Origin: Phoebastria nigripes | Lineage: Eukaryota > Chordata > Aves > Procellariiformes > Diomedeidae | Assembly (NCBI GenBank): GCA_035582835.1 | Contig: JAYKAV010002797.1 | Location: 1-64,000 of the forward strand | Direction of reading: 5' to 3' | Length of the DNA: 64,000 bases | Translations under genes and position numbers: made by a program | The notes under the pieces: model-generated | The model's database searches: none | The model's input: the letters and a program-made list of their open reading frames with translations, nothing else | What the model was told of the DNA's origin: nothing | Shown here: piece by piece, positions 13,266-47,129 of the stretch | How positions within the stretch are numbered: the first letter of the stretch is position 1 | How the letters are laid out: every line of letters starts with the position of its first letter

Positions 13266-13331
13266 TCAGTGTACTGCACGAAAGCAATCACACAGGCCTC
13301 TCTTTTCCGCTCTCAGGAGGAGGGTTTCTGT
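13266..13331 (-). CDS. NICOL1-like: Gene A, terminal coding exon (NICOL1-like secreted peptide)
   Basis: Last coding exon of gene A. The acceptor is excellent: a T-rich tract ending TTTGCAG directly before ACAGAAACC. It translates in phase 0 to TETLLLRAEKRGLCDCFRAVH and a TGA stop. It supplies the second half of the amphipathic helical region and the C-terminal CxC (CDC), which probably pairs with the upstream CVDC. The tail after CDC is five residues ending in H, the same length and final residue as I recall for human NICOL1. A dibasic KR lies just before GLCDC. The matching exon of gene B (37779-37850) shares TETLLL, EKR and LCDC. The exon 2 donor to this acceptor spans a 3.9-kb intron. Confidence 0.93.
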   Translation of the reverse strand, partial: TETLLLRAEKRGLCDCFRAVH

Positions 13332-16300
13332 CTGCAAAAAAAACATGAAATCAAAGAACTGAATATATCACTTTAGAAGAGTATATAATGGATTAGACCT
13401 AATCCCTCTGCACAGCTGTAGTCAAGGTGCTTTCCTGAGTGAAAAATCATAGTTATTAGTGTGGTTTTCATCCAGAAAAAGTGATGAAATAAGTATATTC
13501 GGAACCGAGATGCATGGAGAGTATTTTTATAGTTTAAATGTTTTCATTTTCACAGTTAACTTCTAGGGAGTAGGCTGTCAAAATTATTAAAGTGTCCTTT
13601 ATAAATGCTGAGAAAAATTCCACTTTCAACAGCTCTGCTCTTAATTCCTTCACAGTGATTGATGGCTTCCTGTTGACGATGTCTTCAGTACTGTATAATG
13701 TAATTGCGCCAGATAGCATGTGCTGAGGAGCCAGTTGTGCTCTCAGTTACACTGCTGTTTCTCTAGAATAACTCTGAGTTCAATCCAGCTGTCAGTCTAA
13801 NCTTGTTGTCTGAAACGCATAATCTTTCAGGGCAGATCTAAAGTTGAGTTTGTGGCTCCTATTTTAACCTGAGTTAATTTACGGACAGTTGCCTTATTAT
13901 CAACTCCATTTGGAGCCATGCCGCCAGAACTCCATCAAAAGCTTAAAAACCATTCTCTATATACATCATTTAAAATTACTTGCTCTTGTTTTTGGAGCGT
14001 CTTAGTGGAAAAGCATTTCCAAGCTTTTTTTCTCTGTATCCAAGAAAAAAAATTAACTTCAGATCCTCAAAGATATTTAAGTATCATTTATTTAATTGTG
14101 ATCAAATAACTTAAATCTTTTGTGGGTCCTGGTCTCACTCTTTGAGAAACAAAGGCTGAATTTCTCAAAAGGCACCATCATTTCAAAAGCTGAGTCTCTT
14201 GCAAGGCTCAAAATAAAATTGTTGGTGCAAGCAACTCGCATTAGCAAGTGCAATTGTGACTGAAGAGAAACTTCTTCCTGAGCATATCTTGTGGTTTTCA
14301 CCCTGTGGTCTGTGGTCCCTTAAGTAGTTTGTAGACTGACTTTGAAGAGTTTCTTGAGGGGAAAAAAGTTACCAGGCTTAAATTCACCATGAACGGGTTT
14401 CCCATCTGCACTGGAAAAAAACATTAAANGTTGAAAACCACTTGTTAACAAATTATCTAAAAGCTCTGTGAAACAACAAGGTCTTCAGCCTGCTGGTGTT
14501 CCTCTGACATGATGCCTCCTGACAAATCAGAAACAGGAAAGGGCTAATTAACAAAGGCACACAGTTTCCAAAGGAGTAGCTGGGCACTTCTACCTGGGGA
14601 CCTGCTCCACCAAGCTCTGCCTGGCTTGGCCAGCAGTACCTCTGTCCCCCAGCAGTTCCCACTCTCTACTACTCATTTCTTGTTCTCAGACTGCAAGCTT
14701 TTGCAAGGAGAGGCTGTTTCAGAACGGCTTTTCCCTCCCCTCCACAGCCCTCTATCCTTTCCAACTCAAACTTTTGACATCCACCTTTGCATTAAAGAGG
14801 ACTTGTTCACTTTCCTTGTCTGCTTTCACTTATCAGCTTAGTGCAAATGGCAAGCGTTATTAAACACTGCTCCTCACTTGTACAATGCAATCCTGGATGA
14901 GTGAATGCTCTCATTGTTGGGAGCCCAGTAGAAATCATAGAATCATCTTAACATCAAACAGGCTTATTGGATTTCACTGTAATGCCAACAGGCTGTCACT
15001 GTTACCACAAACCCTGCCTAGGCATCACTCATGACTATTTACAGGCAGGAAGAGCAGCTCTGGGAGCACTCAATTGTAAACTGAAAGACTATGAAAGAGA
15101 AGCATCAATTACAAAAATTAATGCGGCCCTGTTGGCATTGGCTTAGGAAGTCCCTGATAGGAACAGTCCTGCATGGGGCTTGACCTTGTAACAACAACTT
15201 TCAAGACTCAGGAGTTGTTGAATGAAGTTATTTGTGTGTAAAACTTGAGAAATTATATTTGGTCAGCATGAGCCAAGCACCAGCGGTTGAGTAAGGATAT
15301 GGAGGCTGTACCTTTCAGAGAATAGAAGGCCACAGTGTGCCATTTGTAGGGCCCGGGCCACTGCATTTCACTTTAGTATCTCTGCATCATTCAATTTGCA
15401 TTTAACTAAAGCATCTCTTCCAGAAAGGCCTTTGGAGTCTCAGTCCAAAGGCTGGAAAAGATGGACAGTAATATACCCTTTCTTTACTAGTAGTATTAAA
15501 CTCTGACAGTTGTCAAAGGGCAGGTGATGTTCCAGATAACTAGTTACGTTTGTTTTGGTGATATACTGTTCCTGTGCCCCTTGTTCTGTAATACTGAGAG
15601 CTGTCTGAATCAGTGCCTTGGCATCTCAGGCCTGTCCAGGTCCTCACAGAAACAGAAGCTTATCTTGCAGCACTCTGGGACCAGCTTCTCCCTTTATACT
15701 CTGCCTCACCCCTTACAAGACAGCATTGCTCTCTGATGGTTGTATTCTCACTCCACCCTCCAAATAGAATAGCCAACACAGATACGTCTGAATATCTCTG
15801 TATGTGGGATTAAGGAATTGTGCTGCCCCTATTGCATTCAAAAAAAATCTTCCCAGTGCAACTTAGACAGAGATTTAGTACCTCCTTTAACTTCCCATGT
15901 AAAGCCTGGTGACAGTATAAGAACCAACACAGCCGCGATTGCACATGATCTTGCTGTGTTGTGTGTAGGTACAAAACATTTCAGCTGAACCTAATCCAAA
16001 CAGGTGAAACTCCGCTATGCACTAGAACAGCCCAGCACAGCTGCTGGAGGTAAAGCCCCTCTATTCACAGCCTACCACTTAACAGTTATTTAGTATTACA
16101 CTAGTGCATGGGAAACTTTTGCAATGTAACCCGTACTGCACTCAGAGTTCTGCCCTAATCAGTTTGCTATTGATAGCTCAAGAAAGCTAAAGTCACTCCA
16201 ACCTTATTGTGTGGGGCCCTACATGATTGCCCAAGGTCACAAGAAACAAAAGGCAAAGCAACGTAATTGCCCTTCTGTGTTATAGTTTGAGACACATAAT

Positions 16301-17244
16301 TGATTTACATCTCTCTGGTTGACTCTGCTGTGAATGACAATTTGAGCGGAGCGTGACTTTAAAGGAACAAGGAGCCCTTCTCACCTACCAACAAAGATGG
16401 CACCGGCCAGAGGCACTGAGCGGGCACCTGAAGGAACTGGGAGATGTGGCTGTGATCTGGCTTCACTCCCCACAAGTTGCTTTACTGTCATGTTGCCAGT
16501 GTTAATGGAGTTGTCAGGGAAGGAGAGGTAGTACAAGACATACATGAGGGGGGCTTTATTAGAGGTGAGAGACCTCCTGCCTCTCACAAACTTCTGACAG
16601 CATGGGAACCCATGGTAAGTCCTACCCCAGTCAGTGTTTGTGCATATTTATGAACCCACATATGTATGCATTGCTAAAATCAGGGCATTTAACACACCCT
16701 CATTTTTTGTTCATTGGGACCTCTGCAGCACAAGACCAGCATGGGAAGTTGCAAAATGCCCTGTGTGCTATGATAACTACCCAAGGAAATGTGCTTCCCC
16801 CTTTTTCAGAGAGTATTGATCCATGAGCAAGGAATATATGTACTTCCCTTTCCTCTCTGCCAGCCCTGCCTGCCACCTTCTTGCTCTCCAGTTCACTTTC
16901 TGCTCCTGCCCAGTGAACAGTCAGTCCACAGCTCAGAAGCCATGTTGTGAGATAAAGAGTAANTCATCTTTCTTGGTCTTCTCTCCCTTCATACATCTTC
17001 TTTCCTTCTCTATTTGATGCAGGGACTGTCTGGGGTAATTCTTTAGCCTGTTATGCAAGAAGTCTGACTAGATGATCTTTAATGAACACCTCCAGCCTGT
17101 GAAAAATAATCTGTACTTGGTACAATCCTATTTGCTGAAATGGAAGTGAGTCAGCAGAGATGTCATGTCTGCTGTACGCAAACAGGCAGACCTGGCCACT
17201 TGGAGATAAAGGCTAAGTAAAAGCATTTCTATAGAAACACATAC
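13332..17244 (-). other. Gene A intron 3
   Basis: Minus-strand intron of 3,913 bases with GTATGT donor (next to 17245) and TTTGCAG acceptor (next to 13331). It is mostly unique AT-rich sequence; an old CR1 3' remnant lies near 17.05 kb. It cannot be aligned by eye to the corresponding 4.9-kb intron of gene B. Confidence 0.8.
17018..17105 (+). repeat. Ancient CR1 3'-end remnant
   Basis: The stretch around AAGTCTGACTAGATGATCTT resembles the end of old CR1 copies ('GGTCAGACTAGATGATC...GGTCCCTTCC'). It is heavily decayed, lies inside gene A intron 3 and runs opposite to the gene. Confidence 0.45.
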
Positions 17245-17333
17245 CCGTGTGTCTAGATTATACGCTGTCTTCTTTAAATCCTGCAACGCCCTCTGCATGA
17301 ACTCAAACGCATGGCAGTCAACACAGGGACGAC
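17245..17333 (-). CDS. NICOL1-like: Gene A, middle coding exon (CVDC plus helix)
   Basis: Exon of 89 bases: two bases complete the Ser codon begun in the previous exon, then 29 codons starting RPCVDCHAFEFMQ and ending ALQDLKKTAYNLDTR. This is the most conserved part of the C4orf48/NICOL1 family as I remember it (SRPCVDCHAFEFMQRAL). Acceptor: pyrimidine-rich, ending TTTTTCCAG. Donor: CGG followed by GTATGT. The protein segment is identical in gene B (42765-42853), with only 5 of 89 bases different, all synonymous. CVDC supplies two of the four mature cysteines. The helical stretch HAFEFMQRALQDL is rich in hydrophobic positions at i, i+3/4. Confidence 0.96.
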
Positions 17334-46976: not shown

Positions 46977-47065
46977 CTGATCTCTCTCTTGTCTTTGTGA
47001 CGGTCTCTTTGAAATGGCCGCTGCAAACTGCTAACAGAACAAGTGCAGCATTTCTGAGCANGTGC
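46977..47065 (-). other. NICOL1-like: Gene B noncoding 5' exon (5' UTR), upper end uncertain
   Basis: Ends GACAAGAGAGAGATCAG before donor GTACTG, matching GCGAAGAGAAAGATCAG before GTACTT in gene A. The transcription start is not visible; the upper limit is set at the shared TCTGAGCA motif. Confidence 0.65.
47053..47065 (-). promoter_or_regulatory. Shared promoter/5'UTR motif, gene B copy (TCTGAGCANGTGC)
   Basis: Counterpart of 24402-24416 in gene A, 76 bases from the first donor. One base is unresolved (N at 47061). Confidence 0.45.
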
Positions 47066-47115
47066 ACTGTCTCTTTTTAACCTTCTCTGAAAGAGGTTAT
47101 TACTATGGGGAGATT

Positions 47116-47129
47116 TCTGCCATGGCAAC
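47116..47129 (-). promoter_or_regulatory. RFX X-box-like element, gene B promoter
   Basis: Minus-strand GTTGCCATGGCAGA, one half-site perfect and the other near-perfect for the RFX X-box. It is preceded by the shared ATGGGGAGATTT and lies 139 bases from the first donor (132 in gene A). RFX binding is inferred from motif and position. Confidence 0.55.

What the first reader, a model, noticed from the sequence alone, without database searches (positions are those of the whole stretch)
13266..47129. Two complete NICOL1/C4orf48-like secreted-peptide genes in tandem
Two minus-strand genes each show a noncoding exon, a signal-peptide exon (124 coding bases), an 89-base CVDC exon and a short CDC exon, with identical phases (1, 0) and open frames of 92 and 94 residues. 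The family is recalled as single-copy (NICOL1, a NELL2-binding lumicrine or neuronal factor). A constrained tandem pair in a bird, with different signal peptides and C-tails, is to my knowledge not generally described. Exons this small, split by kilobases of intron, are easily missed by automatic annotation.
Basis: partly seen in the sequence, partly recalled or inferred. Interest (0 to 1): 0.88.

Follow-up and report, generated by a model that had tools for sequence, protein, structure and literature searches.

The report
Twin NICOL co-ligand genes in birds
This bird DNA carries two intact neighbouring genes, from a duplication likely as old as the first land vertebrates, each predicted to make a small secreted peptide that would help the NELL2 protein switch on the ROS1 receptor; mammals appear to have kept one copy and lizards the other, so mouse and lizard NICOL would likely not be the same gene.

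Summary
Two minus-strand genes, A (24329-13266) and B (46977-37779), have the stated exons, splice sites, phases (1, 0) and open frames of 92 and 94 residues; both products match Pfam PF15161, the NICOL1/C4orf48 family. The pair is not new to databases: entries called NICOL1 and NICOL1-like (names not consistent by copy) include A and B types on contigs of equal length in 11 species (9 birds, a turtle, a crocodile). The new part is history. A protein tree splits tetrapod NICOL into an A clade (archelosaurs, newt, frog, mammals) and a B clade (archelosaurs, lepidosaurs, caecilian); a duplication inside archelosaurs is rejected (AU p 0.0003). Listed mammal rows show only the A-type tail, listed lepidosaur rows only the B-type tail. 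Both genes keep a homologous promoter with an X-box-like palindrome. Exon 3 is unusually alike at synonymous sites while its flanks are not. Most likely both are NELL2 co-ligands for ROS1, as reported for NICOL. Binding, expression in this species and division of labour are untested. No paper describing the pair turned up in my searches.

The parts
24329..24440 (-). Gene A exon 1, noncoding; 5' end approximate
   Evidence: Donor GTACTTGG after ...AAAGATCAG; alignable with gene B exon 1. Transcription start not determined.
23994..24151 (-). Gene A exon 2: signal-peptide exon, CDS 24117-23994 (124 bases)
   Evidence: Acceptor ...TTTCAG, donor GTACGTAC; ATG at 24117, another in-frame ATG at 24126
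17245..17333 (-). Gene A exon 3 (89 bases), RPCVDCHAFEFMQRALQDLKKTAYNLDTR
   Evidence: 84 of 89 bases identical to gene B exon 3
13266..13331 (-). Gene A exon 4 coding part, TETLLLRAEKRGLCDCFRAVH-stop
   Evidence: Acceptor ...TTTGCAG; TGA 13268-13266; AATAAA starts at 13211
46977..47100 (-). Gene B exon 1, noncoding; 5' end approximate
   Evidence: Donor GTACTGAT after ...GAGATCAG; homologous to gene A exon 1
44672..44814 (-). Gene B exon 2: signal-peptide exon, CDS 44795-44672 (124 bases)
   Evidence: Acceptor ...AAACAG, donor GTACGTAC; ATG 44795
42765..42853 (-). Gene B exon 3 (89 bases), same 29 residues as gene A
37779..37850 (-). Gene B exon 4 coding part, TETLLLQVEKRNLCDCVTANLLN-stop
   Evidence: Acceptor ...CTTATAG; TGA 37781-37779; nearest ATTAAA starts at 37345
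24463..24475 (-). X-box-like palindrome TGTTGCTATAGCA in the gene A promoter region
   Evidence: One of only two exact matches to TGTTGCYATRGCA in 64 kb
47118..47130 (-). X-box-like palindrome TGTTGCCATGGCA in the gene B promoter region
   Evidence: The other exact match; same relative place in the promoter alignment
24324..24806 (-). Gene A promoter/exon 1 block alignable with gene B 46972-47474
   Evidence: score 63.5, highest of 291 random segment pairs 43.5
46972..47474 (-). Gene B promoter/exon 1 block alignable with gene A

Best explanation
These are two intact tandem genes of the NICOL1/C4orf48 family, and each is predicted to encode a small secreted peptide that likely clamps two NELL2 (NEL) chains by disulfide bonds so that the complex would activate the ROS1 receptor. 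Shown by sequence: both keep a hydrophobic leader, the CVDC and CDC cysteine pairs around the segment that is helical in human NICOL, and the same 29-residue central exon. Shown by relatives: both are conserved separately across birds, crocodiles and turtles. Reported in papers: human NICOL forms one helix, disulfide-linked at each end to the coiled coils of a chicken NEL dimer, and rigidifies it; chicken NICOL with chicken NEL activates chicken ROS1 to a comparable level; mouse NICOL binds NELL2 and is needed for male fertility. Inferred: A and B share this core and therefore the same partner. They differ in the N-terminal loop, near the C-terminal end of the helix and in the tail (5 against 7 residues after the last cysteine); by position in the sequence these parts should touch or lie near the LamG/VWC4 and VWC5 domains. 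They would therefore tune rather than replace each other. Inferred: the two arose by tandem duplication, promoter included, no later than the tetrapod stem; mammals kept A, lepidosaurs kept B, archelosaurs kept both. Inferred: both promoters may answer to RFX-type factors, fitting NICOL expression in spermatocytes and brain.
For: Pfam PF15161 at E 7.8e-42 and 1.1e-39; splice sites, phases and frames. A and B types on contigs of equal length in 11 species: Natator depressus, Crocodylus porosus and 9 birds (Merops, Tinamus, Cuculus, Turnix, Mergus, Porphyrio, Catharus, Odontophorus, Zapornia) (same contig is inferred from equal contig length). Tree of 42 rows: B clade with lepidosaurs and caecilian 95/98, A clade with mammals, newt and frog 94/97; holding the archelosaur A and B copies together rejected, AU p 0.000294. 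Tail length: 84 of 85 rows taken as mammalian have 5 residues (1 lacks a complete tail); 20 of 20 lepidosaur rows have 7; 24 of 25 fish rows have 7. Synonymous sites of the mature part of exon 2 and of exon 4 look saturated, pS 0.85 and 0.83 over 11 and 16 codons. The only PDB sequence matched by either product is human NICOL (9oz8, 9ozc, 9ozh). NEL/NICOL/ROS1 mechanism: PMC13044245, sections 10-11 and passages. Mouse NICOL: PMC10125973, passages. Sequences likely from spliced RNA for both types: P0017 (B; contig at most 4170 bases, exon 1-like stretch to exon 4) and P0136 (A; at most 2370 bases), while the window's exons span 9 to 11 kb. A bird-brain transcript assembly lists a C4orf48 homolog (PMC11439032, one passage; which copy is not said).
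Against: No RNA-seq, protein or binding data for this species. Mammals joining B is not rejected (p 0.373) and mammals with archelosaur A alone is not the best tree either (p 0.254), so the mammal-A link rests on tail length and a branch that is not starred. The alignment has only 97 columns, the root was put on fish by choice, and the fish rows are not one side of a branch (coelacanth apart). The lists show the best 120 of 649, 639 and 556 hits. The lepidosaur rows came from the search with B (of these only tuatara also in the A list) and the mammalian rows from the search with human NICOL, which favours the type found; no monotreme row was seen. Absence of B in mammals and of A in lepidosaurs is therefore absence from those lists, not from genomes. 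One fish row (P0309, annotated low quality) has a 5-residue tail. Whether the chicken NICOL of PMC13044245 (72% identical to human) was A or B cannot be told: chicken A gives 71.0% over 62 columns and chicken B 76.8% over 56, and the range used in the paper was not seen. NELFA/NAT8L synteny was not found in the flank ORFs scanned.
Confidence: 0.7

Rival explanations
1. The pair is a recent bird or archosaur duplication, so A and B are near-redundant young copies.
For: Exon 3 is 84 of 89 bases identical between the copies, with all 29 residues the same.
Against: The mature part of exon 2 and exon 4 have pS 0.85 and 0.83; turtle and crocodile rows hold both types; a clade of archelosaur A plus B is rejected, p 0.000294.
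Confidence: 0.03
2. Exon 3 alone was homogenised by gene conversion between the two copies, so its identity says nothing about selection on synonymous sites.
For: pS 0.28 in exon 3 against 0.83-0.85 in its neighbours; codons for identical residues differ in 5 of 29 against 13 of 21 (Fisher p 0.0024; the 21 hand-counted).
Against: The shared stretch ends within 2-3 bases of the splice sites. 100-base intron flanks score -6 and -17, below all 500 simulations each of flanks at the same divergence (lowest 8 and 10), so any converted tract must have stopped at the exon edges, or have been old with later constraint. The upstream flank is somewhat more alike than random segments (3 of 500 as high), the downstream one is not clearly so (79 of 500).
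Confidence: 0.3
3. One locus, not two: the upstream B exons also splice into the downstream A exons, so some products are B-leader/A-tail chimeras and B may serve mainly as an alternative promoter.
For: Of 178 archelosaur-type rows, 3 have a B leader with an A-length tail (Athene P0029, Anser brachyrhynchus P0030, Pangshura P0035), 72 an A leader with 5, 35 a B leader with 7, 68 no complete tail, and none an A leader with 7, as expected if B lies upstream; phases match, so the chimera is in frame.
Against: Gene A has its own promoter block and exon 1, and the B tail is kept from caecilian to birds. The three models may be prediction errors.
Confidence: 0.15
4. One copy is a decayed or silent gene.
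For: No expression data for this species were available here.
Against: Intact frames and splice sites in both; separate conservation of both in birds, crocodiles and turtles; likely spliced chicken-type sequences of both.
Confidence: 0.04
5. The peptides act mainly in the nervous system with NELL2, for instance in ROBO3 axon guidance, and not in sperm maturation.
For: Mouse Nicol is abundant in brain as well as testis (PMC10125973); NEL also activates ROBO3 and whether NICOL is needed there is open (PMC13044245); a bird-brain transcript is recorded (PMC11439032).
Against: The tested requirement is male fertility in mice. This rival shares the same NELL2-clamp mechanism and differs only in the tissue.
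Confidence: 0.3

Closest known systems
Mouse/human NICOL (NICOL1, C4orf48)
   Same: PF15161 domain, leader, CVDC...CxC cysteines, and for gene A the 5-residue tail
   Different: Mammalian rows seen are of one type (84 of 85 with a complete tail, each of 5 residues); the bird locus has a second copy, B, with a 7-residue tail
Database entries 'NICOL1' and 'NICOL1-like' of other birds, turtles and crocodiles
   Same: Same two protein types; up to 98% (B, Limosa lapponica) and 93% (A, Sarcoramphus papa) identical
   Different: Names do not separate the two clades consistently, and no paper listed by my searches describes them
Lepidosaur NICOL1 (geckos, lizards, snakes, tuatara)
   Same: Same clade as gene B, 7-residue tail in 20 of 20 rows
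   Different: No A-type row was listed for lepidosaurs; the rows were gathered with the B query
Ray-finned fish and coelacanth NICOL
   Same: Same core; tail of 7 residues as in B in 24 of 25 rows
   Different: Outside both tetrapod clades in the fish-rooted tree; the two Huso copies group together with paddlefish

Membership tests
NICOL1/C4orf48 (Pfam PF15161) | Profile match above the curated cut-off | tested here: met
   141.2 and 134.3 bits against a cut-off of 27
NICOL1/C4orf48 (Pfam PF15161) | Short secreted precursor with N-terminal leader | tested here: met
   92 and 94 residues; best 12-residue hydropathy 3.03 and 3.07, starting at residues 12 and 14; no signal-peptide predictor was run
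NICOL1/C4orf48 (Pfam PF15161) | CVDC and CxC cysteine pairs flanking a helical segment | tested here: met
   Cysteines present in both products and aligned with the human chain of 9oz8; the helix is taken from PMC13044245, not predicted here
NICOL1/C4orf48 (Pfam PF15161) | Disulfide-linked binding to the NELL2 coiled coil | not testable with these tools
   Reported for human NICOL with chicken NEL (PMC13044245)
NICOL1/C4orf48 (Pfam PF15161) | Boosts ROS1 activation; needed for male fertility | not testable with these tools
   Reported in cells with chicken proteins and in mice
NICOL1 ortholog group (mammalian type, A) | Gene A groups with mammalian NICOL | tested here: inconclusive
   Clade of A with mammals, newt and frog 94/97, not starred; mammals with B not rejected, p 0.373; tail length agrees with A
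NICOL1 ortholog group (lepidosaur type, B) | Gene B groups with lepidosaur and caecilian NICOL | tested here: met
   95/98 starred
NICOL1 locus | Synteny with NELFA and NAT8L | tested here: inconclusive
   No Pfam match in 92 of the 155 flanking ORFs of 58 aa or more; short exons not covered
RFX-controlled promoters | X-box near the transcription start (GTTGCCATGGCAAC or RYYRYYN(1-3)RRNRAC, as quoted in PMC4168999) | tested here: inconclusive
   Palindromic core TGTTGCYATRGCA occurs exactly twice in 64 kb, once per promoter, but the last bases of the 3' half-site depart from the consensus; with up to 2 mismatches there are 14 matches against 9.13 expected; binding untested

The most novel reading that the evidence does not exclude
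Land vertebrates inherited two NICOL co-ligands and lost them in opposite ways: mammals live on A alone, lepidosaurs on B alone, and birds, crocodiles and turtles run both from one RFX-type tandem locus whose shared central exon is also selected at the RNA level and can be spliced across the two genes. Archelosaurs would then build at least two kinds of NEL/NICOL trimer that set ROS1 (or ROBO3) output differently, and every inference from mouse NICOL to lizards compares paralogs.
Probability: 0.3. Interest if true: 0.72.

Novelty: new member of a known kind. Interest (0 to 1): 0.52.

Why it matters
[quoted passage not shown] If mammals and lepidosaurs kept different copies and birds kept both, comparative work on lumicrine signalling and on chicken NEL/NICOL/ROS1 must say which copy is meant. 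Birds would then be a natural setting to separate the copies' roles. The locus also gives a direct test of RFX control and of why one 89-base exon keeps its synonymous sites.

Tried and rejected
Recent bird duplication: rejected by the tree and by saturated synonymous sites beside exon 3. Plain gene conversion of exon 3 with its flanks: rejected by simulation; conversion ending at the exon edges is not excluded. RNA structure as the cause of exon 3 constraint: folding is not unusual (z -0.12 and -1.60; 89 and 13 of 200 shuffles fold as well). Coding exon 1, as in database models beginning MAMTLIREGG: not adopted, because in this window that ATG is in another frame than exon 2. Rfam: no match in the window at gathering scores. 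Flanking genes: no Pfam match in the ORFs scanned. Relatives in viral and prokaryote contigs: none, as expected. A published link between this gene and RFX factors: two searches listed two papers each (three different ones), unrelated by title and abstract start, not read. Species of the window: not determined; the highest identities are with a godwit for B and a vulture, a cuckoo-roller and an auk for A. Two species with both types on contigs of different length (Leptosomus discolor, Lonchura striata) were not counted among the 11. A structure prediction was not run, since solved NICOL structures exist.
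Full report
What is there. The window holds two minus-strand genes of the NICOL1/C4orf48 family in head-to-tail order, B upstream (46977-37779) and A downstream (24329-13266). Each has a noncoding exon 1, an exon 2 with 124 coding bases, an exon 3 of 89 bases and a short last exon, with GT/AG borders and phases 1 and 0. The products are 92 and 94 residues and match PF15161 at E 7.8e-42 and 1.1e-39.

Not unknown to databases. Protein searches returned 649, 639 and 556 hits, of which the best 120 each are listed, 312 different proteins in all. 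Birds, turtles and crocodiles have two types, called NICOL1, NICOL1-like or C4orf48 homolog without consistent use. In 11 species an A and a B protein come from contigs of identical length, which I read as the same contig (9 birds, Natator depressus, Crocodylus porosus); Leptosomus discolor and Lonchura striata have both types on contigs of different length and are not counted. So the pair is linked in all three archelosaur lineages and has been annotated, although not, as far as searches show, described in the papers held here. Those searches counted 117, 4172, 13, 1433 and 77 papers, of which 20, 20, 13, 8 and 40 were listed; subscription papers, such as Endele et al. 2011 (cited in PMC11093611, passages), were not available.

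Two clades. A tree of 42 proteins over 97 columns gives a B clade with archelosaur B, lepidosaurs and a caecilian (95/98, starred) and an A clade with archelosaur A, mammals, newt and frog (94/97, not starred). With the root put on fish, fish and coelacanth lie outside both; the fish rows are not one side of a branch. Forcing the archelosaur A and B copies together is rejected (p 0.000294). Mammals with B is not rejected (p 0.373), nor is mammals with archelosaur A alone (p 0.254). A simple character helps: the number of residues after the last cysteine. Of 312 proteins 163 have 5, 80 have 7 and 69 lack a complete tail. Of 85 rows taken as mammalian (four of them unnamed and assigned by similarity) 84 have 5 and one is incomplete; 20 of 20 lepidosaur rows have 7. 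Of 25 fish rows (two unnamed, coelacanth included) 24 have 7 and one low-quality model has 5; two newts and a frog have 5, the caecilian 7. So 5 looks derived and shared by A and mammals. The duplication is therefore placed no later than the tetrapod stem.

Exon 3. Between A and B the exon 2 mature part has pS 0.85 (11 codons), exon 4 0.83 (16 codons), but exon 3 only 0.28 (5 of 18.0 synonymous sites). Among codons for identical residues 5 of 29 differ in exon 3 against 13 of 21 in the other two (Fisher p 0.0024; the 21 counted by hand). The likeness stops 2-3 bases outside the exon, and 100-base flanks fall below all 500 simulations of equally diverged flanks on each side; the upstream flank still beats 497 of 500 random segments, the downstream one 421 of 500. 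This favours selection on the exon's bases, with conversion ending at the exon edges as the rival. RNA folding does not explain it. The test uses a single genome, so it is suggestive only.

Promoters. About 500 bases ending at the exon 1 donors align between the two genes (score 63.5; highest of 291 random pairs 43.5; with stricter scoring 37 against 36). Both contain an exact TGTTGCYATRGCA palindrome, the only two exact matches in 64 kb; with up to two mismatches there are 14 matches against 9.13 expected. With up to one mismatch to GTTGCYATRGCAA there are 3 matches, two of them overlapping at one site, against 0.55 expected, and 5 of 100 shuffles reach 3. It resembles the RFX X-box (consensus quoted in PMC4168999, passages), although the last bases of the 3' half-site differ. 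RFX2 is proposed to act in pachytene spermatocytes (PMC2797782, abstract and passages), and mouse Nicol and Nell2 are strong in spermatocytes (PMC10125973, passages). RFX control is an inference; searches for a direct link found nothing.

Mechanism. In mice NICOL binds NELL2 and is needed for male fertility. In the human NICOL/chicken NEL structure one NICOL helix bundles with the coiled coils of two NEL chains, with three intermolecular disulfides at each helix end; the NICOL N-terminus touches LamG and VWC4, and the VWC5 domains touch the two ends of the helix (PMC13044245, sections 10 and 11). Human NICOL is the only PDB sequence matched. A and B share all four CVDC/CDC cysteines and the 29 exon-3 residues. 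From 10 residues before RPCVDC onward they differ at D33E, S36T, V37A, R78Q, A79V, G83N and in the tail; the leaders differ widely (15 of 42 residues of exon 2 identical). I therefore expect the same clamp with altered side contacts; no coordinates were examined. The chicken study reports one cNICOL, 72% identical to human; chicken A gives 71.0% over 62 columns and chicken B 76.8% over 56, which does not settle the copy.

Expression. P0017 (B type; its last 101 residues equal those of chicken P0014) runs from an exon 1-like stretch to exon 4 in a contig of at most 4170 bases, and P0136 (A type; contained in chicken P0139) covers exons 2 to 4 in at most 2370 bases, while the window's exons span 9 to 11 kb; both are therefore likely spliced RNA. 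A bird-brain transcriptome lists a C4orf48 homolog among genes lower in the migratory group (FDR 0.10; PMC11439032, one passage). Of 178 archelosaur-type rows three combine a B leader with an A-length tail and none the reverse, which fits read-through splicing but may be prediction error.

Limits. The window's own genome could not be searched (tool busy in eight tries). No vertebrate DNA other than the window was available, and supplementary files could not be opened.

Noticed in passing
32712-33224 (+) and 56943-57305 (+): Reverse-transcriptase-like ORF pieces (VYLDFSKAFDTVSH; CSALVRPHLQYCVQLW), recalled as typical of CR1 LINE elements
   Followed up: no
26543-26607 and 38360-38424: 65-base direct repeat, 82% identical, resembling CR1 3' ends (recalled)
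   Followed up: no
Gene B intron 2, just before 42853: Repeated CTACTAAATGCTCT motif ahead of the acceptor; two database models (P0032, P0116) extend exon 3 into a like stretch, suggesting an alternative upstream acceptor
   Followed up: partly
26 positions across the window, for example 13243, 24284, 47061: Isolated single N bases, none in a coding exon of the two genes
   Followed up: partly
Database rows P0029, P0030, P0035: Models with a B leader and an A-length tail, in an owl, a goose and a turtle; all in the direction allowed by gene order
   Followed up: partly
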